This document shows positions 10,560 to 61,041 of a stretch of 64,000 nt of DNA, one piece after another. Source of the stretch: Pirellulales bacterium. Its GTDB lineage: Bacteria > Planctomycetota > Planctomycetia > Pirellulales > Lacipirellulaceae. Each line of letters begins with the position of its first letter. Within the stretch, counting starts at the first letter, position 1. The translations under genes and the position numbers were made by a program. The DNA lies in contig JADLBW010000161.1 of assembly GCA_020847515.1 (NCBI GenBank), forward strand, positions 1 to 64,000, given 5' to 3'. The notes beneath the pieces were generated by a model. The model had not been told where the DNA came from, did no database searches, and saw only the letters and a program-made list of their open reading frames with translations.

Positions 10560-12421
10560 CGGCGCCCTGGACCAGCGACCGGTTGCTGGAGGCCGTCGGC
10601 CAGTTGTGCAACGGCACGCTCCCGGAGTCCGAAGGCCGGCAGCTCGACGAACTACTGCGCGACGATCCGCAGGCCCGCCGGCTCTACACCAACTACATGT
10701 GGGTCCACGCCTGCCTGTACGCCGAAGGCGGCTCGCTCGTCGCCGACTCCGCGACGCCGGCGAGCGAACGGCCAGCGACGTCGCCCGACTACGGCCAGCG
10801 GCTCGACCTCGCGAGCGGTCCCCCCGCCGCTCAAGCGCTGCGCAGCAGGGCCTGGTGGGTCGCCTTGGCCGCGACGATCCTCGGCGTGGCAGCGTTCTCC
10901 AGTTGGCTGACCTACCGATTAACCGACGGTCGGCGACTGGCGCACAGCCCCGGTGCGGCCCCTGCAAGCCGGGGCTCGGATCCCGCCGCCAGTTCGCCTG
11001 CGGCGGTCGTCGCCCGCATTACCGGCACGCACAACTGCCTGTGGCGCGATCCCCATACGGCGCTAGGCTACGGTTCGTCGCTGGCCGCCGGGCAGCGAAT
11101 TGAGCTGGCCGAAGGATTGGCCGAGATCACGTTCAACGATGGCGCGGCGGTCCTGTTGGAAGGCCCGGCGACGTTCGACGTCAACGCCTCGGATAAGGTT
11201 GGCCTCCGCGCCGGTCGCCTCGCCGCCGTCGTCCCGCAGCGGGCCCGCGGCTTTCGCATTCACACCGCTGCCCTCGATTTGTTTGAAGCGGGGACCGAGT
11301 TCGGCCTGATCGCGCGGGAATCGGGCGCCGCCGAGGTGCACGTCTTCAGCGGCCTGGTGAAGGCGGACGTACTGGACGCCGCCGGACGCGCCTTCCGCCG
11401 CATCGAGCTCAACGCCGCCGAGGCCGCCCGCATCACGCCCCTGGCCACGACCATCGCCGAATTCCCCGCCGACGACGCCCAGTTCGTGCGCAATATCATG
11501 CCGCCGGTCGGGCCGCACGACGGTCTGTTGGCCGACGAGGCCTTCCGTTACCCCGAGGGACCGCTGGAGGCCCAGAACGGCGGCTTCGGCTGGGCCGGTC
11601 CGTGGTTTACTACCTCCGCCGAAGACGAAGCAGGCCCCGATTCCAACAGCGTGAAGGCCGGCAGCCTGGCCGTCCAAGGCGTGGTGCCGGTCGGCAATCG
11701 GGCCTGCATCGCCGGCCATTACAACCGCATTCGCCGGCAGCTTGCCACCAGCGTCGGCGGCGTGTTCGACGCCGAGGGGCTCGTCGAGAACCAGGACGAC
11801 GTCCGCCTCATCGGCCGCGACGGCAAGCGGGTCTACGTCAGCTTCCTCCAGCAGGTATCGCAGGCGGGCGACGGGTTCTACGGCGTCGAGCTTCACCGCG
11901 GCGACGGCAACGGCAACCGCGTGCTCTGCATCGGAAACGGCGCCGAGGGGGCCGGCTACGGGGCCACCTCGAACGTCAATATTTATGGCCCCAAGAATTT
12001 CCCCGCCCTGGGCGAGGAAACCAGCGAGACCAGCCTGCTGGTGATTAAGATAAGTTTCGGCGTCGACAACCGCGATACCGTCGAGGTGTTCCGCAACCCC
12101 CGGTCGCTGCGCGACGAAGCCGCCTGCCAGGCCGATGCGATCCTCCGCGGCAATTTCGCTTTCGACCGCATCAGCCTCGCCAATTTCGACGGCCGCAAAA
12201 CGCACGAAGTGGACGAGATTCGAGTCGGAACCCATTTTCTGGCGGTGACGGGCCGCTGGGGTAACAATCAGGGAAGGTTGCAGCGGCAAATCGCCCGCCG
12301 CCCAGATCGACAAGGGATGAGTGTTCAATTGTCAGTCGTCCGTTGTCCGTTGTTGACCGCCATTTGTACTAGCAAGCCAAACAACAGTTCCCGACCCCCG
12401 ACCCTGACCTATGACCTCTGA
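10556..12421 (+). CDS. FecR-domain membrane protein, probable anti-sigma partner
   Basis: 621 residues. The N-terminal cytoplasmic part (about 1-50) resembles planctomycete FecR anti-sigma proteins. A single membrane helix (about residue 100) contains VALAATILGVAAFSSWLTY. The FecR domain follows (NDGAAVLLEGPATFDVNA, GTEFGLIA, EVHVFSGLVKADV), then a long C-terminal region (about 320-580) that may be a lectin-like fold. ATGA overlap with the sigma gene sets the start. The last roughly 35 residues are encoded by heptamer-repeat DNA, and the stop codon lies inside a repeat unit. Confidence 0.82.
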   Translation: MTAPWTSDRLLEAVGQLCNGTLPESEGRQLDELLRDDPQARRLYTNYMWVHACLYAEGGSLVADSATPASERPATSPDYGQRLDLASGPPAAQALRSRAWWVALAATILGVAAFSSWLTYRLTDGRRLAHSPGAAPASRGSDPAASSPAAVVARITGTHNCLWRDPHTALGYGSSLAAGQRIELAEGLAEITFNDGAAVLLEGPATFDVNASDKVGLRAGRLAAVVPQRARGFRIHTAALDLFEAGTEFGLIARESGAAEVHVFSGLVKADVLDAAGRAFRRIELNAAEAARITPLATTIAEFPADDAQFVRNIMPPVGPHDGLLADEAFRYPEGPLEAQNGGFGWAGPWFTTSAEDEAGPDSNSVKAGSLAVQGVVPVGNRACIAGHYNRIRRQLATSVGGVFDAEGLVENQDDVRLIGRDGKRVYVSFLQQVSQAGDGFYGVELHRGDGNGNRVLCIGNGAEGAGYGATSNVNIYGPKNFPALGEETSETSLLVIKISFGVDNRDTVEVFRNPRSLRDEAACQADAILRGNFAFDRISLANFDGRKTHEVDEIRVGTHFLAVTGRWGNNQGRLQRQIARRPDRQGMSVQLSVVRCPLLTAICTSKPNNSSRPPTLTYDL

Positions 12422-12459
12422 CCTCTGACCTCTAACCTCTACCCATTACCCACTCCCGA
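12326..12459. repeat. Heptamer repeat tracts H0/H1
   Basis: Units cagtcgt, ccgttgt, ccgttgt, tgaccgc run from 12333 to 12360. Ten consecutive 7-bp units run from 12390 to 12459 (cccgacc twice, ctgacct, atgacct, ctgacct twice, ctaacct, ctaccca, ttaccca, ctcccga). The tract overlaps the 3' end of the FecR-protein gene. Confidence 0.85.
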
Positions 12460-12536: not shown

Positions 12537-13397
12537 ATGAAGCGAGTGTTCGGACTTCTTCTCTTGTGCTTCGTCGCGTCGCCCGTCGCGGCGCAAATCA
12601 CCGTCGACGGCACGAAGGACGGCGCCTACGGCGGCCCGCTCGCCGTCCAGACCGTCGAAACCCAGTTCGGCGACAACTTCAGCGAGCTCGACGCCGGCTA
12701 CGGCCGCATCGACGGCGGCCGGCTGTACCTGATGCTCGCCGGCAACATCGAGGCCAACTTCAATAAGCTCGAGATCTTCATCGATTCCAAGGCCGGAGGG
12801 CAAAGCGTCTTCGACAGCTCCGGCAACGACAACGCAGGCAACATGGACGGGCTGATGTTCGACGTCGGCTTCACCGCCGATTACCACGTCATCGCTCGGC
12901 GCGGCGATGCCGGCGGTCCGCGGTTCGACCTCGATTTCGCCAACCTCGGCGCCCAGTCGGCTTCGAGCCATTTAGACTTCCTCGTCGGCGGCGGCGACGC
13001 CGGCGCCGGCTCGACCGGCACGGGCGTCAACGCCAGCCCCATCGAGGTCGGTTACGACGGCAGCAATACCGCCGGCGTGCTCGGCGGCACGGCTGCGGCT
13101 GATCAAACGGCCGCCGCCGCCGTCACCACCGGCCTGGAATTAAGCATCGCCCTGAGCGACCTCGGCTACGCCGGCGGTCCCATTCAGGTGATGGTCGGCC
13201 AGAACAATCAGAACCACGATTTCTGGTCCAATCAGTTCCTCGGAGGCATCCCGCCGCAAGGAAACCTGGGCGGACCAGGCGCGAAGAACTTCGCCACGAT
13301 CGACGGCAACCAGTTCTTCACCGTCGTCCCCGAACCGGCGACCGCGGCGCTGGTCGGCCTGGCCGGCCTGGCCCTTGCGCTCTTTCGCCGGAAGTAA
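12537..13397 (+). CDS. PEP-CTERM sorting domain protein
   Basis: 286 residues with a clean signal peptide (MKRVFGLLLLCFVASPVAAQ) and a C-terminal PEP-CTERM tail: VPEPATAALVGLAGLALALF then RRK. This predicts export and exosortase-type processing. The ATG follows a good ribosome binding site (ggaggt, about 10 bp upstream). The body carries VDGTKDGAYGGPLAVQT and NIEANFNKLEIFIDSKAGG, matching the protein encoded at 19606-21054, so the two are paralogues. It lies just downstream of the sigma/anti-sigma pair. The biochemical function is unknown. Confidence 0.85.
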   Translation: MKRVFGLLLLCFVASPVAAQITVDGTKDGAYGGPLAVQTVETQFGDNFSELDAGYGRIDGGRLYLMLAGNIEANFNKLEIFIDSKAGGQSVFDSSGNDNAGNMDGLMFDVGFTADYHVIARRGDAGGPRFDLDFANLGAQSASSHLDFLVGGGDAGAGSTGTGVNASPIEVGYDGSNTAGVLGGTAAADQTAAAAVTTGLELSIALSDLGYAGGPIQVMVGQNNQNHDFWSNQFLGGIPPQGNLGGPGAKNFATIDGNQFFTVVPEPATAALVGLAGLALALFRRK

Positions 13398-16009: not shown

Positions 16010-16071
16010 CCTCGTAGCCGCTCCTGTGATGAACCTGCCCGCTGTAACCCTCTCTGATCCGGCCGCCATTG

Positions 16072-19000
16072 ATGCTTCGATCGCCAGTCCGCCCGCCGAC
16101 TCCATCGGATCGTTCCCCACCGTCGATCTCCCGCGCCGCCTGCGCGACCCGGCGTCTCGTGCGACTGACCGCGGCGCTGATGTGCCTGGCTGGCTGGACG
16201 TCACCGCCGTCTGCGGCTCGCGCCGAGGATGCCTCGGCGCCTGCCATCCTGCAAATCTTTGAAGCCCGCTGGAGTACGATCGAGGACCGCATGGCCGACA
16301 TCCACGACATCGGCTACGGCCGGCTGTGGCTGCCACCCCCGGCGCGGGCCGACAGCGGCAATCAATCGGTCGGCTACGACGTGTTCGACCGGTTCGATCT
16401 CGGCCAGCCCGGGAGTGAAACCCTCTATGGCACCGAGCTCGGCCTGAAGCGGCTCATCGGCGCCGCGCACTCCGCCGGCGTGCTGGTCAACACCGACTTC
16501 ATCCCCACCCACAACGGCTTCAGCGATTCCAGCACCGTCGACTCCCGCGGCACGGCGTCGACGGCCGACGATGTGTCGTTCGTCGCCGGCGGGGGGTATC
16601 CAGGCTTCGTCCTCACCCTGCCGGGCGACGTTGACGGCGACTTCCACGGCGCCTTCGAGGGGGGGCAAGAACATGAGCGGCTTTCCGGCCTGATCGACAT
16701 TGCTCAAGAGAAGAACCACCAGTTCATCCGCCATCCGACGACGCCCGGCGACCCGCAAAATATTCCCGCCGGGACGCAGGGGGTCTTCGGCCGCCCGCCC
16801 GCCAACGTACCCCGTCCTTCCAACGCCCGGTTCTACCCCGACCAGGGCCTTGGCGGCACGACCGTCTTCGACCCGCGGCTGGGGTCGAGCGTCACGCTCT
16901 ACGATTTCAACACGGCCGACCCGCTGGCCGGCGACCCGTACGCCGAGAACGCCCTGGGCCTGGTCATGCGCAACGCCCGCTGGATGATCCAGGAAATCGG
17001 CGTCGACGGCTTCCGCATCGACGCCGGTCGCCACTTTCCCCGCTGGGTGCTCGACTACCTTGACCAGGCGATGTTCCTGGCCAAGCGAGAGCCGCTGCTC
17101 GACGGCAGCCCGCAGCACGTCTTCAGCTTCACCGAGACAGGCTACGACTCCAGCGCGTTCATCCAGGGCTTCATCCGCAAAGACGTCGACGACGCGAACC
17201 TGGCCCAGGTCGGCGGCAACCGCGACGCCCTCGACTTCAACCTCTTCGGCGCCCTCAAGGGCAACCTCACCGCGAACGGCTTCGCCAACAACTGGCACAA
17301 CATCAAGCGGGCGAGCATCGACCTAAACGACGACGGCCTCCGCAACGGCAGCCAGGGAGTCGCCTTCGCCCAAAGCCACGACGAGCTGGGCCCCTATCTG
17401 CAAAACGTCGCCTACGCCTACACGCTGATGCTTCCCGGCAACGCCATCGTCTACGCCAACGCCAGAGAGTTCGGCGCCGGCCGCGGCTTCCCCCGCGGCG
17501 GCGAGGACGACGCCCTGGGAGGCTATTACGGGGAGACGATCACCAAGCTGGTGGAGCTCCGCAATAGCCACGGCCGCGGAGACTTCCGCGAACGGTGGAT
17601 CGACGACGCGTTCAATCCCAACGGCTTCTCGAACATCTACGTCTACGAGCGATCCAACTCCGCCTTGATCGGGCTGAACAGCCGCAATGATTCCTTCGTC
17701 GAAACCCGCAGCGGCGTGGCGACCGACTTCGCGCCCGGCACGGTGCTGGTCGAACTGACCGGCAACGCCGCCGATCCGACCGTCGATCCGGACAACGCCG
17801 TTGCCGAGGCGATTCGCGTCGACGCCGCCGGCCAGGTGCAGCTCAGCATTCCCAGCAATGCCGGCCACGGCCGCGGCTATGTCGTCTACGGCTTAGCGAC
17901 TCCCCAGGGCGCCCTCTCCATCGGCGGCGTCTCGAAGGTCCTCGCCGGCGCGACGCCGACGGCCGCCCATAACGGCACGGCCCGCCTGGCCGACGTCGAC
18001 GTCGTCACGGGCGACTCGTTCACCGTCTCCCTGAGCACCGCGCCCGTAACGCTGCCCGCCCCCGTCGGGGAGTCGAGCCCGCTGCGCGACGAGCATGCCG
18101 ACGGCGACGCGGCGCTGATCAAGATCGACGGCGGCCGCGACCTGAACAACTTGCCTGGCGTCGACCACGTAACGCCGGGGAGCGTCGCCTACGGCTTCGA
18201 GGAGTTCACCGACGTCCGCTCGCCCGGTTTCGTGGCTGACGCCGCCGGGGCGAACATCGGCCCGGGCGCCGGCCAGTATTCGCAAACCATCGACGCCGCG
18301 CAGCTCGCCGAGGGCCGCCATTACATCACCGTCCGGGCCTTCCGTCATCGCAACGCCGCCACTGGCGGTGACGGCGGCCCGGCGGTGTTTAGCGACTTCA
18401 CGCGCACCGTGTACGTCGACCGCCTGCCGCCCGAGGCCGCCGTCGTCAGTTTCGAGCCCTTCGCCACGAGTCCCGGCGACCTCCAAAACCGCGACCTCGT
18501 CGTCCGCTCGACCGACGGCACGGCCGATAACATGCACTTCTTCCTCGATCTGCCGGCCGGCCTCAGCGACCAGCAGATTCTGCAACTGGTAAGCGGCGCA
18601 AACGATGCCGGCCGCTACGATCGCGACAGCTTCGTCCGGGGCTACTTCGGCGTAAAGACCGGCAACCACGTCGCCACGGTCGTCGCCTTCGAGCCGAGCG
18701 GCAATGTCAACGTCGAGCGCTTCGCCGGGCTGTTTACCGATACCGGCGCAGGCGCCGGCTTCGGCGATATGAACGGCAACGGCTTTATCACCGCCGCCGA
18801 CATTTCCGGCACGAGCGGCGGATCGTTTGAACAGGTCCTCTACAGCCAGAACGCCATGTTCAGCGCCGCCGCCGACGTCGACGGCGACGGGCTCGTCGAT
18901 AATCGCGACCTGTTGGCGCTCGGCCCGCGTTTGATCGCGCAAGGCGCCAGCGCCCCCGGGCTCGCCGCTTACGACGCCCTGCTGCTGAAGCGCGGCGACC

Positions 19001-21054
19001 AGAACCACGACGCCCGCACCGACGGGGCCGACGTCCTTGCGCTCTACGCCAGCTTCGGCCAGTCGACGTGGCTGGCCGATCTGAACGTCGACGCCGTTGT
19101 CACTGTCGCCGACGTCCAGACGCTCGTCGTCGACCTTGTGCGGACCAGCGCTGCGGACTTCAACCTGGATCGCCGCGTCGACGCGGCCGACCTGCTGGCA
19201 TGGCAACTGGGCGCCGCCCTGCCGGGGGCGCGGTTCGATCAAGGCGACGCCAACCTCGACGGCGTCGCCGACGCCGCCGACCTCGCCTTGTGGAACGCCG
19301 ACTTTGGCAACACCTATCCCGCGCCCGGCGCCGCTGCGGCGATCCCCGAGCCCTCTTCCGCGCGACTAGTCGGGCTGGCGGCATCGATCGTCCTGTCGCT
19401 GGCGGGCCGTCCTACGCGCTTCCGGCGCCGCGAGCGGCTAACTGACAAGGCGATGCAGAAATCAGAAATCAGAAATCAGAAATCAGAGGTCAGAAATCAG
19501 AGGTCAGAGGTCAGAGGGCGCTGCGAGCGGCCAACTTACAGGCAATGCACTAGACACCCGCGGCCCGCTACTGCGGGCCCACATCAACGAGGGAGGACTT
19601 GCGACATGAGAACTCATCCCGTGAGGCACTGCGCCGTCGCGGCGCTGGCGACGCTCGTCTTGAGCGCCGCCGCTGTGGCCGTTCCGCTGATGGACGGCAC
19701 GGCCGACGTCGAGTACGGCGCCGCCCTGTCGACGCAGAACACCAACACCCAGTTCGGCGACGCCGTTAACGGCGACCAGATCAACGGCGGCGGCGGCTCG
19801 GAGATCGATCAGATCTTCGCTACCGTGGCCGACGGACGACTCTATATCACCATCGCCGGAAACCTGGAGACCAACTTCAATAAGATCGAGGTCTTTCTGG
19901 ACTCGACCGGCGGCGGCGTCAATACGATCAACGGCGCCGACCAGCCGACCATGGTCGACGGATACTGCTGTAAGCAAGCTGGCGTCAACCTGCCCGATCC
20001 TGCCAGCGGCGCCTTGCAGCGGATGAACGGGCTCACGTTCGACGCCGGCTTCAACGCCGATTACTACCTCACGTTCACCCACGGCTTCGAAGGCAACATC
20101 GACGGAACCGGCAACGGCACCGACGGCGGGCTGCGGCTGTATGCCTCCAGCGTCCACTTCGCCAAGCTCTCCGACCCGGCTAATTCCGTCGTCGGCTTCG
20201 GCCAAGCGCTCGGCATCCAACTGGCCCAGCGCGGGCTGCCCAACGTGCTGCGCGGCACGACGGCCGATTTCGACATCGACGGCGACGCCGACGGCGACGA
20301 CTTCCTCATCTGGCAGCGCAACCTGGGCGCCGTCGGCGTCAACCGCAAGCAGGGCGACGCCGCCGAGCCCTTTGGTACCGTCGACGCCGCCGATCTGGCG
20401 GTGTGGCAGGCCGCCTACGGCTTCGACCACGCAACCGCCGCGTTCGACGCCAACTTCTTCGCCCCTCAAAGCCAGGGCATCGACAACTCGAACGTCTTGT
20501 TGGGCCCGGAGTTGCCGAACCTCAGCCCGGGCGAGCTGATCGATAAGGACTATGTCGCCGCCAATCCCGACGTGGGCGCGCCAGAACTGCAGTTCGTCCT
20601 CGAGCCGATCTCGGCCGACAACAAAGAGAACCGCCGCGACATGCTCAACACGGTCGAGCTGCAAATGGCGATCAACAACAGCAACGCGCAGGGCGTCACC
20701 GGCGACGGACCCTACGAGAATCCGACGACCGGCAATCCCCAGGAGGTCCGCACCGGCATCGAGTTCTCGATTCCGCTCGACAAGATCGGCAACCCCTCCG
20801 CTCCGATTAAGTTGACCGCCTTCGTCAACAACGGCGCGCACGATTTCCTTGCCAACCAGGTCTCCGGCGAAGGCATCTTGTTCGGCAACCTCGGCAGCCT
20901 GATGCCCGACTTCGAGTTGGAATTTCCCGGCGCCCAATTCGTGACGATCCCCCTCTCGGCGATCGGCGCGGCCAGCGCCGTTCCCGAGCCCGGCGCGCTG
21001 GCGCTGGCGGCCGTCGCGATCGCCGCCCTCGCCTTGCCGCGGCGGCGCAGTTGA
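16072..21054 (+). CDS. Continuous frame: secreted amylase-like GH13/dockerin/PEP-CTERM module read through into a second PEP-CTERM protein
   Basis: The frame is open for about 1660 codons. Residues 1 to about 1123 form one complete exported protein: signal peptide (LVRLTAALMCLAGW); a TIM-barrel GH13-like domain with the nucleophile-type GFRIDAGRHF (about residue 315), acid-type FTETGYD (about 355) and SHDE (about 436); beta-rich modules; five Asp-rich dockerin-like repeats (DMNGNGFITAADIS, DVDGDGLVDNRDLLAL and others); and a PEP-CTERM tail IPEPSSARLVGLAASI plus FRRRER. The frame then crosses a 63-bp heptamer tract and enters a second PEP-CTERM protein that has its own ribosome binding site and signal peptide at 19606. 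A TAA one base out of frame at 19439-19441 suggests the first stop was lost by a small frameshift. The protein probably ends there in function. Confidence 0.7.
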   Translation: MLRSPVRPPTPSDRSPPSISRAACATRRLVRLTAALMCLAGWTSPPSAARAEDASAPAILQIFEARWSTIEDRMADIHDIGYGRLWLPPPARADSGNQSVGYDVFDRFDLGQPGSETLYGTELGLKRLIGAAHSAGVLVNTDFIPTHNGFSDSSTVDSRGTASTADDVSFVAGGGYPGFVLTLPGDVDGDFHGAFEGGQEHERLSGLIDIAQEKNHQFIRHPTTPGDPQNIPAGTQGVFGRPPANVPRPSNARFYPDQGLGGTTVFDPRLGSSVTLYDFNTADPLAGDPYAENALGLVMRNARWMIQEIGVDGFRIDAGRHFPRWVLDYLDQAMFLAKREPLLDGSPQHVFSFTETGYDSSAFIQGFIRKDVDDANLAQVGGNRDALDFNLFGALKGNLTANGFANNWHNIKRASIDLNDDGLRNGSQGVAFAQSHDELGPYLQNVAYAYTLMLPGNAIVYANAREFGAGRGFPRGGEDDALGGYYGETITKLVELRNSHGRGDFRERWIDDAFNPNGFSNIYVYERSNSALIGLNSRNDSFVETRSGVATDFAPGTVLVELTGNAADPTVDPDNAVAEAIRVDAAGQVQLSIPSNAGHGRGYVVYGLATPQGALSIGGVSKVLAGATPTAAHNGTARLADVDVVTGDSFTVSLSTAPVTLPAPVGESSPLRDEHADGDAALIKIDGGRDLNNLPGVDHVTPGSVAYGFEEFTDVRSPGFVADAAGANIGPGAGQYSQTIDAAQLAEGRHYITVRAFRHRNAATGGDGGPAVFSDFTRTVYVDRLPPEAAVVSFEPFATSPGDLQNRDLVVRSTDGTADNMHFFLDLPAGLSDQQILQLVSGANDAGRYDRDSFVRGYFGVKTGNHVATVVAFEPSGNVNVERFAGLFTDTGAGAGFGDMNGNGFITAADISGTSGGSFEQVLYSQNAMFSAAADVDGDGLVDNRDLLALGPRLIAQGASAPGLAAYDALLLKRGDQNHDARTDGADVLALYASFGQSTWLADLNVDAVVTVADVQTLVVDLVRTSAADFNLDRRVDAADLLAWQLGAALPGARFDQGDANLDGVADAADLALWNADFGNTYPAPGAAAAIPEPSSARLVGLAASIVLSLAGRPTRFRRRERLTDKAMQKSEIRNQKSEVRNQRSEVRGRCERPTYRQCTRHPRPATAGPHQRGRTCDMRTHPVRHCAVAALATLVLSAAAVAVPLMDGTADVEYGAALSTQNTNTQFGDAVNGDQINGGGGSEIDQIFATVADGRLYITIAGNLETNFNKIEVFLDSTGGGVNTINGADQPTMVDGYCCKQAGVNLPDPASGALQRMNGLTFDAGFNADYYLTFTHGFEGNIDGTGNGTDGGLRLYASSVHFAKLSDPANSVVGFGQALGIQLAQRGLPNVLRGTTADFDIDGDADGDDFLIWQRNLGAVGVNRKQGDAAEPFGTVDAADLAVWQAAYGFDHATAAFDANFFAPQSQGIDNSNVLLGPELPNLSPGELIDKDYVAANPDVGAPELQFVLEPISADNKENRRDMLNTVELQMAINNSNAQGVTGDGPYENPTTGNPQEVRTGIEFSIPLDKIGNPSAPIKLTAFVNNGAHDFLANQVSGEGILFGNLGSLMPDFELEFPGAQFVTIPLSAIGAASAVPEPGALALAAVAIAALALPRRRS
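19456..19518. repeat. Heptamer repeat tract H2
   Basis: Nine 7-bp units, five cagaaat, three cagaggt and one cagaggg. The reverse complement acctctg is the same unit as in tract H1. Nine units make 63 bp, so the reading frame is preserved across the tract. Confidence 0.9.
19606..21054 (+). CDS. PEP-CTERM protein with internal dockerin-like repeat
   Basis: 482 residues from an ATG preceded by gggagga about 9 bp upstream, with its own signal peptide (VRHCAVAALATLVLSAAAVA). The body matches the 12537 gene (MDGTADVEYGAALSTQN, NLETNFNKIEVFLDSTGGG, FNADYYL). An Asp-rich dockerin-like pair (DFDIDGDADGDDFLIWQ and VDAADLAVWQAAYG) sits in the middle of the domain. The C-terminus VPEPGALALAAVAIAALAL plus PRRRS is a PEP-CTERM signal. 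It is probably a gene in its own right although it shares an open frame with the amylase upstream. Confidence 0.8.
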   Translation: MRTHPVRHCAVAALATLVLSAAAVAVPLMDGTADVEYGAALSTQNTNTQFGDAVNGDQINGGGGSEIDQIFATVADGRLYITIAGNLETNFNKIEVFLDSTGGGVNTINGADQPTMVDGYCCKQAGVNLPDPASGALQRMNGLTFDAGFNADYYLTFTHGFEGNIDGTGNGTDGGLRLYASSVHFAKLSDPANSVVGFGQALGIQLAQRGLPNVLRGTTADFDIDGDADGDDFLIWQRNLGAVGVNRKQGDAAEPFGTVDAADLAVWQAAYGFDHATAAFDANFFAPQSQGIDNSNVLLGPELPNLSPGELIDKDYVAANPDVGAPELQFVLEPISADNKENRRDMLNTVELQMAINNSNAQGVTGDGPYENPTTGNPQEVRTGIEFSIPLDKIGNPSAPIKLTAFVNNGAHDFLANQVSGEGILFGNLGSLMPDFELEFPGAQFVTIPLSAIGAASAVPEPGALALAAVAIAALALPRRRS

Positions 21055-21169: not shown

Positions 21170-23197
21170 TTGTCCGCCCTGAACCGCAACCTTCGTGAAT
21201 CGGCGGTCGCCACATTGGTCGTGCTGCTGGCGTCGACCTCTCTGGGCTGCGGCGCCGCCGGCCCGCCGCCGCCCGCCGATCGCAGCGCCGCGCCGCCGAC
21301 GAGCGCTCCAACCGCTGCCTACGTCTCGCGCCCCGTTGATCGAGTCGCAGCCGAACAGCCGGCGCCCCCGGCGCTCGAGTGGAGCGAGGTCGAACCCCTG
21401 CCAAACGTCCCCCTGTGGGCCGTCGACGCGGTCTTCTACCAGATTTTCCCCGAGCGATTCCGCAACGGCGACCCGTCGAACGATCCCAACCGCCAGTCGC
21501 TCGAACTGCCCGACGTGGTCCCCCCCTCCTGGGCGATCACCCCCTGGACGGGCGACTTCTACGCCCGCGCCGACTGGGAACGGCAAAGCGGCGACAACTT
21601 CTACGACCACGGCGTCTTCAATCGCCGCTACGGCGGCGACCTCCAAGGCGTCCTCGACAAGCTCGACTACCTCGACCGGCTCGGCGTCACCGCCCTGTAC
21701 TTCAATCCGGTGTTCTACGGCCGCTCGCTCCATAAGTACGACGGCGCGTCGATGCACCACGTCGATCCCTACTTCGGCCCCGACCCGGCGGGCGACCTGG
21801 CGCTCATCGCCGCCGAGTCGAGCGATCCGCAAAGCTGGCACTGGACCGCCGCCGACAAGCTCTTCCTCGAGCTGCTCGCCGAGGCCCACCGCCGGGGCGT
21901 CCGGGTGATCATCGACGGCGTGTTCAACCACACCGGGCGCGACTTCTTCGCCTTCCAGCACCTCCGCGAGCACCAGCAGGACTCGCCCTACGACGATTGG
22001 TACATCGTCCAGCACTACGACGACCCCGAAACGCCGGCCAACGAATTCCGCTACAAGGGCTGGTGGGGCATCGATACGCTCCCTGAATTCGCCAATAGCG
22101 CCGCCGGCGACGATCTCCACGCAGGCCCGCGCCAGTACGTCATGGATATTACCCGCCGCTGGATGGACCCCGACGAGGACGGCGACCCGGCCGACGGCGT
22201 CGACGGCTGGCGGCTCGACGTGGCCGAGGAAGTTCCGCTGAACTTCTGGAAGGCCTGGAACGCCCGCGTCCGCCAGCTCAACCCTCAGGCCTACACCGTC
22301 GCCGAGATCTGGAACGACGCCCGCACCTATCTCGTCGGCGGCGGCTTCTCCGCCACGATGAACTACCACGCCTTCGCCTACCCGGCCAAAGGCTTTCTCA
22401 TGGACGGGCGGCTGTCGGCCCACGACTTCGGCCGCGAGCTGCTCCTGCGCCGGCAGAAGTACCCCTCCGCCATGCAGTTCGCCCTGCAGAACCTCGTCGA
22501 TTCGCACGATACCGACCGCCTCGCCTCAATGCTCGTGAACCATCCTGGCGACGCGCCCTACCGCAACGGCGATCGCTTCGACTACGACGAGTCGGGCCTC
22601 GTCTCGCCGCGGCAGGATCCGACCTACGACGTCCGCAAGCCCGACGCCGCCGCCAGCCGGCTGCAGCGGATGGTCGTCCTCATGCAAATGACCTATCTCG
22701 GCGCCCCCATGGTCTACTACGGCGACGAGGCCGGCATGTGGGGCGGCGACGACCCCTGCTGCCGCAAGCCCATGCTATGGGACGACCTGCAGTACGACGA
22801 CGAGGCCGGCGATCCGCTGGGCCGTCCGCGTCAGCCCGACGAAGTCGCCGTCGACCAGGACCTGCTGGCGTTCTACCGCCGCGCGATCGCCCTGCGCCGC
22901 CAGCACGACGTCCTCCGCCGCGGCAGTTGCACGACCGTGGCCAGCGACGACGACGCCAAATTCTTCGCCTTCGGCCGCAAGCTGGCCGGCACGCAAATGC
23001 TCGTCGCCCTTAACCGCGGCGACCAGCCCTACGCCTGGCAGCCGCCGGCCGACGCCCTGCCGTCCGGCGCAGGGGCGCTGGAGCTATTGCTGGCGACCGA
23101 CGAAGGCGCCCAGATCCGTCCCGCCGCCGAGGGCCGCCCGCCTACCGTCTTCATCCCCGCACGAACCGGCGTTGCGCTGGCCGGGCCATCGCCGTGA
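21170..23197 (+). CDS. GH13 alpha-amylase/cyclomaltodextrinase-type lipoprotein
   Basis: 675 residues from a TTG start, which is the only start that includes the signal peptide (AVATLVVLLASTSLGC, lipobox SLGC); aaaggg precedes it. All four GH13 regions are clear: VIIDGVFNHTG, GWRLDVAEEV (nucleophile about residue 349), YTVAEIWND (acid about 379) and VDSHDTDR (about 447). The family hydrolyses alpha-1,4-glucans and cyclodextrins. Lipid anchoring places it in the periplasm or at the surface, where it would feed oligosaccharides to the transporter encoded by the next genes. Its stop overlaps the next start (GTGA). Confidence 0.92.
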   Translation: MSALNRNLRESAVATLVVLLASTSLGCGAAGPPPPADRSAAPPTSAPTAAYVSRPVDRVAAEQPAPPALEWSEVEPLPNVPLWAVDAVFYQIFPERFRNGDPSNDPNRQSLELPDVVPPSWAITPWTGDFYARADWERQSGDNFYDHGVFNRRYGGDLQGVLDKLDYLDRLGVTALYFNPVFYGRSLHKYDGASMHHVDPYFGPDPAGDLALIAAESSDPQSWHWTAADKLFLELLAEAHRRGVRVIIDGVFNHTGRDFFAFQHLREHQQDSPYDDWYIVQHYDDPETPANEFRYKGWWGIDTLPEFANSAAGDDLHAGPRQYVMDITRRWMDPDEDGDPADGVDGWRLDVAEEVPLNFWKAWNARVRQLNPQAYTVAEIWNDARTYLVGGGFSATMNYHAFAYPAKGFLMDGRLSAHDFGRELLLRRQKYPSAMQFALQNLVDSHDTDRLASMLVNHPGDAPYRNGDRFDYDESGLVSPRQDPTYDVRKPDAAASRLQRMVVLMQMTYLGAPMVYYGDEAGMWGGDDPCCRKPMLWDDLQYDDEAGDPLGRPRQPDEVAVDQDLLAFYRRAIALRRQHDVLRRGSCTTVASDDDAKFFAFGRKLAGTQMLVALNRGDQPYAWQPPADALPSGAGALELLLATDEGAQIRPAAEGRPPTVFIPARTGVALAGPSP

Positions 23198-26530: not shown

Positions 26531-26700
26531 CACCAATGACCAAGTTCCAATGACCAAGTTCCAATGACCAAGTTCCAATGACCAATCGCTGAAGAAAGGT
26601 TACCAAAGCGCTGATCCTTGGTCATTGGTAATTGGTGCTTGGTCATTGTCCCTCGCCCTTGTTCTCGAAATCCAAAATCCCGAAATCCGAAATCCCGAAA
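26531..26700. repeat. Heptamer repeat tract H4, arranged as a large inverted repeat
   Basis: Eight 7-bp units (caccaat, then gaccaag/ttccaat alternating) run from 26531 to 26586. Twelve units on the opposite sense run from 26617 to 26700 (cttggtc, attggta, attggtg, cttggtc, later ccgaaat). Segment 26617-26648 is close to the reverse complement of the first block, so a long hairpin is possible. It fills the spacer before the ATPase gene. Confidence 0.85.
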
Positions 26701-59697: not shown

Positions 59698-61041
59698 CAG
59701 TCCATGAGGCGAGGACGGGACGTGTTTTTTCCTAGATTGGCTGCCAGGCGGAAGAAATGCAAGCGGCGCGTTGCCCGCCGCTTGGGAAGGCGTCGCTTGG
59801 ATTCGACGCAGACGGCCGACGATCTGTACAGCCTCGCACCTGATGATTTCAGATGCGTCGTGGCCTGAATGTAACTGCTACGGGAACGGTGCATTCCGCC
59901 TGGAGGCCGGCCTGCTGATAACTATTGAGAACTGCGACGAATGAACCGTGCCTGGCTGTCGGCTAGCGGCTAGCCGCCGACGGCCAGAGGGAGCAGGCCT
60001 AATTCTGGCCGCTAGCCAATAGCCGATAGCCGATAGCCGATAGCCAAATCCTCAAGTGACGCAATGTGCGGCGGAGCTTGATCAGCCCTTCGTCCTCGAA
60101 GCGAATTGGAGTATCCCTCAGGCGCAAGTTCTGCGGCGACGGGAGCTGGCTTTGGCCGCCCTCCCAGCGCGCGGGCGCGTAGTGGGGTATTCTGCACTGG
60201 TTCGGCCAGCAGGGCCGACCGCCCAACAGGGCCGTTCTCTGGCGCTCAGGCGCCCGAACGGCGGTGGCGCGAGGCCGCGACGGCGCGGGCAGTAACTGTA
60301 ATGAGCGACTCCAATCCGCCTGAGGGACGGGGCGGCAACTGATTGACAGCGGGCGGTTTGACGATCGCTTTCCGCCCCGCCCCTACAGCTTGTCGCGGCA
60401 CCGCCAAAAAATTTGCCAAATCTGCGATTGCAGGCCTTGTCGAAAGTCGATACTTTGCCAAACATTGAAACCAGAAGTGACAGCACTGCTACTTCACTCT
60501 TACCAAGGCGGTTTCCAGCGACAGCACCTATAGCCCCGAAAGGCCCTCGCGGCGTTGACAGCAGCTTCCCTTCATCAAGTAGTGCCAGAAGCTACTCGCC
60601 GCACCCCTCGGCTCGCCCGGCCGGTGCGCAGTTGGATCGATCAGGCCGCCCTTCGTTTGCGGATCGCCCTCAGCTCTCTTAGCTGGCGGGGGCGTTTGCG
60701 TCGTTGAGCCATGTCCCACGGGGCGCCGCTGCACGCTTGCTCGGCCGCCTGCTTCGCACAGTCCTCACTGTAGGTTGTCCGCCTCTGTACGGCGGCGGCC
60801 AGTTCTCCAGCAACTGTCGGCGTCTGGCGTTGTAGTCCAGCGTCGAGCCACGCCCGGGACGATCCGCCCGGCCCAAATCGCCCGGCTCTTACCGGGCAAA
60901 TCCGCGTTTCTTTCCGCGACGCCGTGTGCCGCGTACCGCGCTCGCCATGCAAGGCGTGCCGCATGGGCAAAGGTGGCTGGTGGCCGCACCTTTGAACAAG
61001 TTGTCGCACCCTTGGGCGACTGCCGCAGGAGGCTCTCTACG
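59698..61041. other. Long intergenic region, 1.34 kb
   Basis: Between the divergent CAP-protein and DUF3326 genes. It holds two heptamer tracts (59954-60048) and otherwise no gene that can be supported. The frame of the DUF3326 gene is open back to 60775, and a minus-strand frame of 122 codons at 60641-61009 shows no recognisable sequence. No tRNA or obvious stable RNA fold was recognised. Confidence 0.4.
59954..60048. repeat. Heptamer repeat tracts H9/H10, in inverted orientation
   Basis: Units ggctgtc, ggctagc, ggctagc, cgccgac, ggccaga run from 59954 to 59988. Units ggccgct, agccaat, agccgat three times, agccaaa run from 60007 to 60048. The second block is roughly the reverse complement of the first. 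Confidence 0.75.

What the first reader, a model, noticed from the sequence alone, without database searches (positions are those of the whole stretch)
19380..21054. Two PEP-CTERM proteins joined in one open frame through a 63-bp heptamer tract
The amylase-like protein has a full PEP-CTERM tail at about 19340-19440, then no stop for 55 codons, and the frame passes nine 7-bp units into the next protein, which has its own ribosome binding site and signal peptide. A TAA one base out of frame at 19439 suggests loss of the stop by a small indel. Gain or loss of one or two 7-bp units would shift the frame, so the fusion could switch on and off between cells.
Basis: partly seen in the sequence, partly recalled or inferred. 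Interest (0 to 1): 0.5.

Follow-up and report, generated by a model that had tools for sequence, protein, structure and literature searches.

The report
Two secreted-protein genes newly joined
Two neighbouring genes for surface-sorted proteins, separate in the related bacteria where this could be read, run together here as one open frame across an inserted patch of 7-letter repeats; following this up showed that related bacteria carry conserved genes in which two or three such proteins are chained in one frame, an arrangement not found in the papers searched.

Summary
In detail: frame 16069-21054 runs from an amylase-like protein with a PEP-CTERM-like tail, through a 62-bp CAGARRT tract, into a second PEP-CTERM protein that keeps its own start. 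The phase-switch idea is not supported. In 20 of 20 relatives where the join could be read (3 more could not), the two genes are adjacent but the amylase stops 25-47 residues after PEP, and the tract is absent. The tract lies between two imperfect 28-bp copies. Removing tract plus one copy either (92 bp) brings TAG 19551 into frame, for a normal 1130-aa amylase, or (93 bp) leaves the join, so the insertion itself may have made it. No tract length tried restores the normal tail. The wider result is larger: this genome and at least 27 of 43 genomes of its family carry single frames with two or three PEP-CTERM units joined as PEP-helix-Arg-signal peptide-AxA. 21 of 46 junctions have no start codon, so these look like exosortase 'polyproteins', whereas PEP-CTERM is described as C-terminal virtually without exception (Haft et al. 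2006). The window is best read as a young, loose join of ordinary genes, possibly a nascent member. No reads or proteomics could be checked.

The parts
16069..19440 (+). Amylase-like protein (unit 1) with signal-peptide-like start; the true start codon is not determined
   Evidence: PF00128 E 7.9e-6 and NCBIfam PRK09441 family E 2e-25, below its curated cut-off; matches in 37 of the 96 other genomes searched
19342..19440 (+). PEP-CTERM-like tail of unit 1 (IPEP - hydrophobic - RFRRRER)
   Evidence: sequence; no PF07589 hit; 9.8 bits to the PEP half of the junction model; orthologues end in PEP-CTERM-like tails
19430..19457 (+). Left copy of 28-bp imperfect direct repeat
19439..19445 (+). Out-of-frame TAA (19439) and TGA (19443)
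19456..19517 (+). Heptamer tract, CAGAAAT/CAGAGGT, about 9 units; no forward stop
19523..19549 (+). Right copy of the direct repeat (27 nt, one base shorter)
19551..19553 (+). TAG, out of frame now; ends the amylase at 1130 aa if a 92-bp insertion is taken out
19562..19579 (+). 7-bp hairpin in the spacer before gene 2; spacers of relatives mostly not significant
19591..19597 (+). Ribosome binding site of gene 2 (GGGAGGA); CCACATCAACGAGGGAGGA is identical in G002
19606..21054 (+). Gene 2 (unit 2): secreted protein of unknown function with its own PEP-CTERM end
   Evidence: matches in 28 of the 96 other genomes searched at E<=1e-10, several only partial; PEP-CTERM at 20977-21036: 20.7 bits, at the cut-off, but 15.3 bits, below it,

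Best explanation
These are two ordinary neighbouring genes, an amylase-like one and one of unknown function, in a Lacipirellula-like planctomycete. So far seen only in this genome, an insertion into the spacer brought in a heptamer tract and a second copy of about 28 bp of flanking DNA. A net 92-bp change moved the amylase's stop (most simply TAG 19551) out of frame and joined the two frames. Gene 2 keeps its own ribosome site and is probably still made on its own. If ribosomes read through, the product is a tandem precursor: PEP-CTERM helix, basic loop, signal peptide, second protein. The same order occurs in the conserved chained PEP-CTERM frames of this family, so the join need not be harmful. 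Shown: the open frame, the tract, the repeat copies, and separate genes in relatives. Inferred: the insertion as cause, the translation, and the processing.
For: Separate genes in 20 of 20 readable relatives, tails of 25-47 aa, no CAGARRT tract. Flanking repeat: 0 of 5000 shuffles and 2 of 5000 random same-spacing pairs in the window score as high. A second CAGARRT tract, G000:C18:15615-15648, also lies between copies of about 35 bp. Taking out tract plus one copy as a 92-bp insertion gives a 1130-aa amylase ending in TAG; most same-family frames that cover the gene are 1088-1193 aa. The gene 2 leader is identical in G002.
Against: If the ancestral repeat copy was the 27-nt form, the excision is 93 bp and the join remains, so the stop was lost otherwise; the alignment cannot tell the two apart (29 of 58 crossover models each). 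Only 2 of 14 CAGARRT tracts have strong flanking copies. The relatives are too distant (62% or less in gene 2) for an exact empty site. The source is a draft assembly in 282 contigs, 68.6% complete.
Confidence: 0.55

Rival explanations
1. Nascent functional polyprotein: the joined frame is translated whole and cut at the first PEP-CTERM and at the second signal peptide.
For: Conserved two- and three-unit PEP-CTERM frames in the family; exosortase genes present; same order of parts in the window.
Against: By one rule the next hydrophobic core starts 93 residues after the PEP motif begins in the window, against 24-44 in 46 collected junctions (24 is the floor of the rule). Gene 2 keeps an ATG with a ribosome site. 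The join is not conserved (0 of 20). The signal-peptide half scores only 1.0 bit.
Confidence: 0.2
2. Sequencing or assembly error removed the stop.
For: Draft metagenome-type assembly; TAA and TGA lie out of frame close by; no reads to check.
Against: No homopolymer longer than two bases at 19430-19445. A correctly read insertion can by itself explain the lost stop.
Confidence: 0.15
3. Phase-variable switch: gain or loss of 7-bp units turns the fusion on and off.
For: 7 is not a multiple of 3 and the tract carries no stop; changes by 1 or 2 units would end the frame at TAG 19551 or at TGA 19607, which overlaps the ATG of gene 2.
Against: No such tract at this place in 20 relatives; similar tracts lie mostly outside predicted genes (8 of 35 and 6 of 20 inside, against coding fractions of 0.78 and 0.76); no state tried restores the native end; gene 2 has its own start.
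Confidence: 0.04

Closest known systems
PEP-CTERM/exosortase sorting (TIGR02595, PF07589, TIGR02602)
   Same: PEP motif, hydrophobic helix, basic end; signal peptide; exosortase genes in the genome
   Different: Known as a C-terminal signal; here one copy lies inside the frame, followed by another signal peptide and protein
Intergenic heptanucleotide repeats of bacteria (TAACTGA arrays of Beggiatoaceae PMC4679880; GGGACCG arrays of Geobacter metallireducens PMC2700814; GATAGRA of Chloroflexus PMC6749651; passages seen)
   Same: Short tandem 7-bp units dispersed at many places of a genome
   Different: Different units; at two places here the array lies between copies of about 30 bp of flanking DNA, and here it lies inside an open frame
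Viral polyproteins with internal signal peptides (recalled, no call)
   Same: Membrane helix, then an internal signal peptide that starts the next secreted unit
   Different: Bacterial; the upstream unit ends in an exosortase signal; processing not shown

Membership tests
PEP-CTERM protein | PEP motif - transmembrane helix - basic cluster | tested here: inconclusive
   Unit 2: 20.7 bits, at the cut-off, but 15.3 bits. Unit 1: visible by eye, no PF07589 hit, 9.8 bits to the PEP half of the junction model
PEP-CTERM protein | signal near the C-terminus (87% within ten residues in PMC1569441) | tested here: not met
   Unit 1: 570 residues from PEP to the end. Met for unit 2
PEP-CTERM protein | exosortase encoded in the same genome | tested here: met
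   2 matches over the TIGR02602 cut-off
Conserved chained PEP-CTERM frames (class described here) | single open frame with internal PEP-CTERM and a following signal peptide | tested here: met
   frame open; parts in that order by sequence, weak scores
Conserved chained PEP-CTERM frames (class described here) | compact junction (signal-peptide core starts 24-44 residues after PEP) | tested here: not met
   93 in the window against 24-44 in 46 junctions
Conserved chained PEP-CTERM frames (class described here) | join conserved in orthologues | tested here: not met
   0 of 20 for the window pair; 7 of 7 relatives whose loci cover both junctions for the C109 frame
Conserved chained PEP-CTERM frames (class described here) | no separate start with ribosome site for the downstream unit | tested here: not met
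   window has GGGAGGA + ATG 19606; only 3 of 46 collected junctions have such a start
Phase-variable simple-sequence-repeat locus | unit number varies between cells | not testable with these tools
   no reads held
Phase-variable simple-sequence-repeat locus | unit length changes the reading frame of a dependent product | tested here: met
   but gene 2 has its own start
Dispersed heptamer repeats | same unit in tandem at many places of the genome | tested here: met
   41 overlapping hits at 13 places against 0 in the control pattern

The most novel reading that the evidence does not exclude
Planctomycetes of the Lacipirellulaceae make many exosortase substrates as secreted polyproteins: two or three PEP-CTERM proteins in one frame, each PEP-CTERM helix and Arg cluster followed at once by the signal peptide of the next unit, cut by exosortase and signal peptidase into separate surface proteins in fixed ratio. 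The window shows how such genes begin: an insertion shifts a stop and joins two neighbours while the old start of the second gene is still there.
Probability: 0.5. Interest if true: 0.8.

Novelty: new variant of a known kind. Interest (0 to 1): 0.6.

Why it matters
PEP-CTERM is described as a C-terminal signal. Conserved internal copies followed by signal peptides mean that either exosortase can act on internal sites or these proteins stay as membrane-threaded chains. Both would change how exosortase is thought to work and how these genes are annotated. Genomes whose sizes match those of type strains in culture carry such frames, so the question can be tested by mass spectrometry. The window adds a possible early step in their making.

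Tried and rejected
Phase switching: rejected because no unit number tried (-8 to +6) gives a normal end and the tract is absent in the readable relatives. It cannot be excluded without reads.

Conserved fusion of this pair: rejected (0 of 20). Left out of that count: L043, L057 and L062 (G005, G039, G037), where the script found no PEP tail in the locus; for G039 a second copy (L069) was readable and is counted. The start the script chose for G020 gives an overlap of -4 and looks wrong, so its spacer and frame are not used. The 1669-aa frame of G008 is a stop-to-stop frame that ends after the PEP tail; it is not a fusion.

Tract in relatives: besides reading the spacers, looked for 21 nt or more with 80% identity at lag 7. 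One spacer (G031) has a C-rich 22-nt stretch of that kind, not CAGARRT; the other 19 have none.

Conserved hairpin before gene 2: window z -2.1 and G038 -2.0, the other 14 spacers between -1.5 and +2.2; not pursued.

Flanking duplication as a general rule for heptamer tracts: 3 of 79 arrays in two genomes score at or below 3 of 300 shuffles, one of them a weak 14-bp-period array. Of 14 CAGARRT arrays, two have copies of about 30 bp; a third (C59) shares only a 12-bp match, 3 of 400.

One search read minus-strand loci in the wrong orientation. Its rows, and the minus-strand rows, were discarded and redone. One search failed on a missing key. One search lost L208 to its own filter. In one search two rows (L035, L054) are pattern matches in gene 2 relatives, not the unit searched for.

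Full report
WHAT IS THERE. The frame 16069-21054 is open for 1661 codons. It joins an amylase-like protein to a second secreted protein with its own start at 19606. In between lie a PEP-CTERM-like tail (from 19342), 55 stop-free codons and the tract 19456-19517. The window lies in a draft genome of 4.18 Mb in 282 contigs, 68.6% complete. The downstream neighbour at 21170 is a second amylase-type enzyme.

WHOSE GENOME. Some relatives can be named by inference. G026 has the 818,070-bp contig of Bythopirellula polymerisocia Pla144, and G004 the 58,480-bp contig of Pirellula sp. PB1.3.31. In Table 2 of PMC7717034 (passages seen), Lacipirellula parvula PX69 has 6.92 Mb in one contig, as G003 (6,922,258), and Pla175 (Pirellulimonas nuda) 6.62 Mb in one, as G015 (6,618,662). 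G017 (6.6 Mb, one contig) would fit Pan181 (Aeoliella mucimassa). G002 (6.78-Mb main contig, but two contigs) would fit 'Lacipirellula limnantha' I41. The family is thus Lacipirellulaceae and the genus, shared with G002 and G003, probably Lacipirellula.

THE PAIR IN RELATIVES. The amylase matches in 38 of 97 genomes, own included, and gene 2 in 29 of 97, own included, several only in part. In 20 relatives the join could be read; in 3 loci it could not. All 20 have the two genes in the same order on the same strand, all 20 stop 25-47 residues after PEP, and none has a CAGARRT tract in the spacer. In 19 of them with a credible start the spacer is 10-145 bp. Gene 2 lies in the frame of the amylase stop in 3, one base off in 10 and two in 6, so there is no conserved frame relation. 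The leader CCACATCAACGAGGGAGGA is identical in the window and G002. Gene 2 is therefore normally an independent gene, and its start is still kept here.

HOW THE JOIN AROSE. The tract lies between 19430-19457 and 19523-19549, two copies of one 28-bp sequence. Their alignment score is not reached in 5000 shuffles, and is reached by 2 of 5000 random pairs at the same spacing. If the single ancestral copy had the 28-nt length, taking out tract and one copy removes 92 bp and the amylase ends at TAG 19551 after 1130 residues, with a 39-residue tail. If it had the 27-nt length, 93 bp are removed and the frame stays joined. I favour the first but cannot prove it. A second tract of the same unit (G000:C18:15615-15648) also lies between copies of about 35 bp. 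Of 14 CAGARRT tracts only these two show it, so it is not the rule.

THE TRACT. Period-7 arrays are a feature of these genomes. There are 22 in 281.5 kb of the own genome against 0 in a shuffled copy (a biased sample: most of the added stretches are from contigs chosen for a CAGARRT match), and 13 against 0 in an evenly spaced 400 kb of G002. Of arrays with strong 7-bp periodicity, 8 of 35 (own, the window's tract among the 8) and 6 of 20 (G002, all six within about 4 kb) lie mostly in predicted genes, where the coding fraction is 0.78 and 0.76 (simple codon-usage gene calls). Dispersed heptamer repeats are known in other bacteria (PMC4679880, PMC2700814 and PMC6749651, passages seen). With -8 to +6 units the amylase keeps 51 or more residues after PEP, so slippage in that range cannot restore a normal end. 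With changes by 1 or 2 units the frame ends at TAG 19551 or at TGA 19607, which overlaps the gene 2 start.

THE WIDER CLASS. A search of the own genome with the Pfam PEP-CTERM model at E<=1 gave 110 hits, of which three each fall in two single frames: C80 (1423 aa) and C109 (1510 aa). In both, the helix and basic cluster of one unit are followed at once by a signal-peptide-like segment with AxA and then the next unit. Against TIGR02595 the two proteins score 28.8 and 33.2 bits (cut-off 16), the best stretch being an internal copy in each. The C109 frame is conserved: the 7 relatives whose loci cover both junctions (G001, G002, G003, G008, G015, G023, G027) are all open through both. The stops that one search counts in the matches of G001 and G002 lie at the C-terminal end, by comparison with the frames. 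The C80 frame is full length in G001; G003 and G005 have related frames with units in another arrangement. From the hits of these two queries 46 distinct junctions were collected (hydropathy and pattern rules of my own). 21 of 46 have no in-frame ATG, GTG or TTG, and 3 of 46 have a start with a ribosome-site-like sequence. The joins evolve fast while the mature parts stay. Over five full-length C109 frames identity is 0.61, 0.54 and 0.63 in the bodies of units 1-3, 0.44 in each of the two internal PEP-helix parts, and 0.32 and 0.22 in the two signal-peptide parts. One free-standing homologue of unit 3 (L219) has SD, ATG and a signal peptide that ends at the matching place, so the junction's second half corresponds to an ordinary signal peptide.

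HOW COMMON. A model of 41 of the junctions (A1) was run over 43 genomes of the family at E<=1e-5. All 43 have some match, but many are plain PEP-CTERM ends. Of the 150 rows listed (the list was cut), 103 reach model position 45 or beyond, and 96 of these are free of stops, in 27 of 43 genomes and about 85 frames; G017 alone has 17. The model was built from such junctions, so its fit is not independent evidence; the open frames and missing starts are. In a spread of 294 genomes of the phylum at E<=1e-7, 12 have a match, own included. Outside the own genome the full-span stop-free matches are one in G173 and two in G255; two more full-span matches (G123, G279) hold stops. I read G173:C36, where the locus shows one junction but not the end of the next unit, and G255:C26, which has two PEP-CTERM copies; for G255:C226 my frame filter returned nothing. 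Only 23 candidates per genome were scored, so this is a lower bound. In evenly spaced samples, 400 kb of G003 held 19 terminal and 2 internal PEP-CTERM (both in one three-unit frame), and 400 kb of G002 held 19 terminal and two internal pattern hits, neither a junction. In 281.5 kb of the own genome there were 13 terminal ones and only the window's internal one. Internal copies are thus a minority.

WHERE THE WINDOW STANDS. It has the same order of parts but not the compact junction (93 residues against 24-44), not the lack of a start, and no conservation. I therefore do not file it as a member. If translated through it would work like one, and it may be an early stage. L216 (G026) shows junctions that still have a start with a ribosome-site-like sequence within a three-unit frame, a possible middle stage.

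WHAT IS IN PRINT. Haft et al. [quoted passage not shown] Four searches showed no report of such chains: exosortase, PEP-CTERM and planctomycete (7 papers, listing seen); PEP-CTERM with polyprotein (0 papers); multiple or internal PEP-CTERM (2 papers, listing seen); PEP-CTERM with tandem, signal peptide or processing (top 15 of 689 listed). Apart from PMC1569441 the papers listed in these four searches were not opened, and subscription papers are mostly not held, so absence from print is not established.

Noticed in passing
L165:4486-8754 (-) and L166:3071-7600 (+) (G000:C80, G000:C109): Single frames of three PEP-CTERM proteins each, conserved in relatives including single-contig genomes; the wider class described in the report.
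   Followed up: yes
G000:C18:15615-15648 (L081, L142:3016-3049): A second CAGARRT tract lies between two imperfect copies of about 35 bp, like the window's; possibly an insertion that duplicates its target.
   Followed up: partly
window 26533-26648 and 59953-60046; L082 19860-19958; L084 9711-9790: Heptamer arrays come as inverted pairs that could form hairpins in spacers (window pairs; the others by eye); several unit families per genome.
   Followed up: partly
G096:C1:4042-10533: Two amylase-like copies in one 3615-aa open frame; G046, G051 and G064 also have frames of 1427-1764 aa around the amylase.
   Followed up: no
window 12561-12854 and 19606-21054: A smaller relative of gene 2 lies upstream of the amylase, after another CAGARRT-type tract at 12400-12440; several relatives have hits of similar kind near the pair.
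   Followed up: no
L216 (G026:C4), junctions at residues 265 and 727 of the frame: Chained PEP-CTERM frame in which the inner units still have start codons with ribosome-site-like sequence: a possible middle stage between separate and chained genes.
   Followed up: partly
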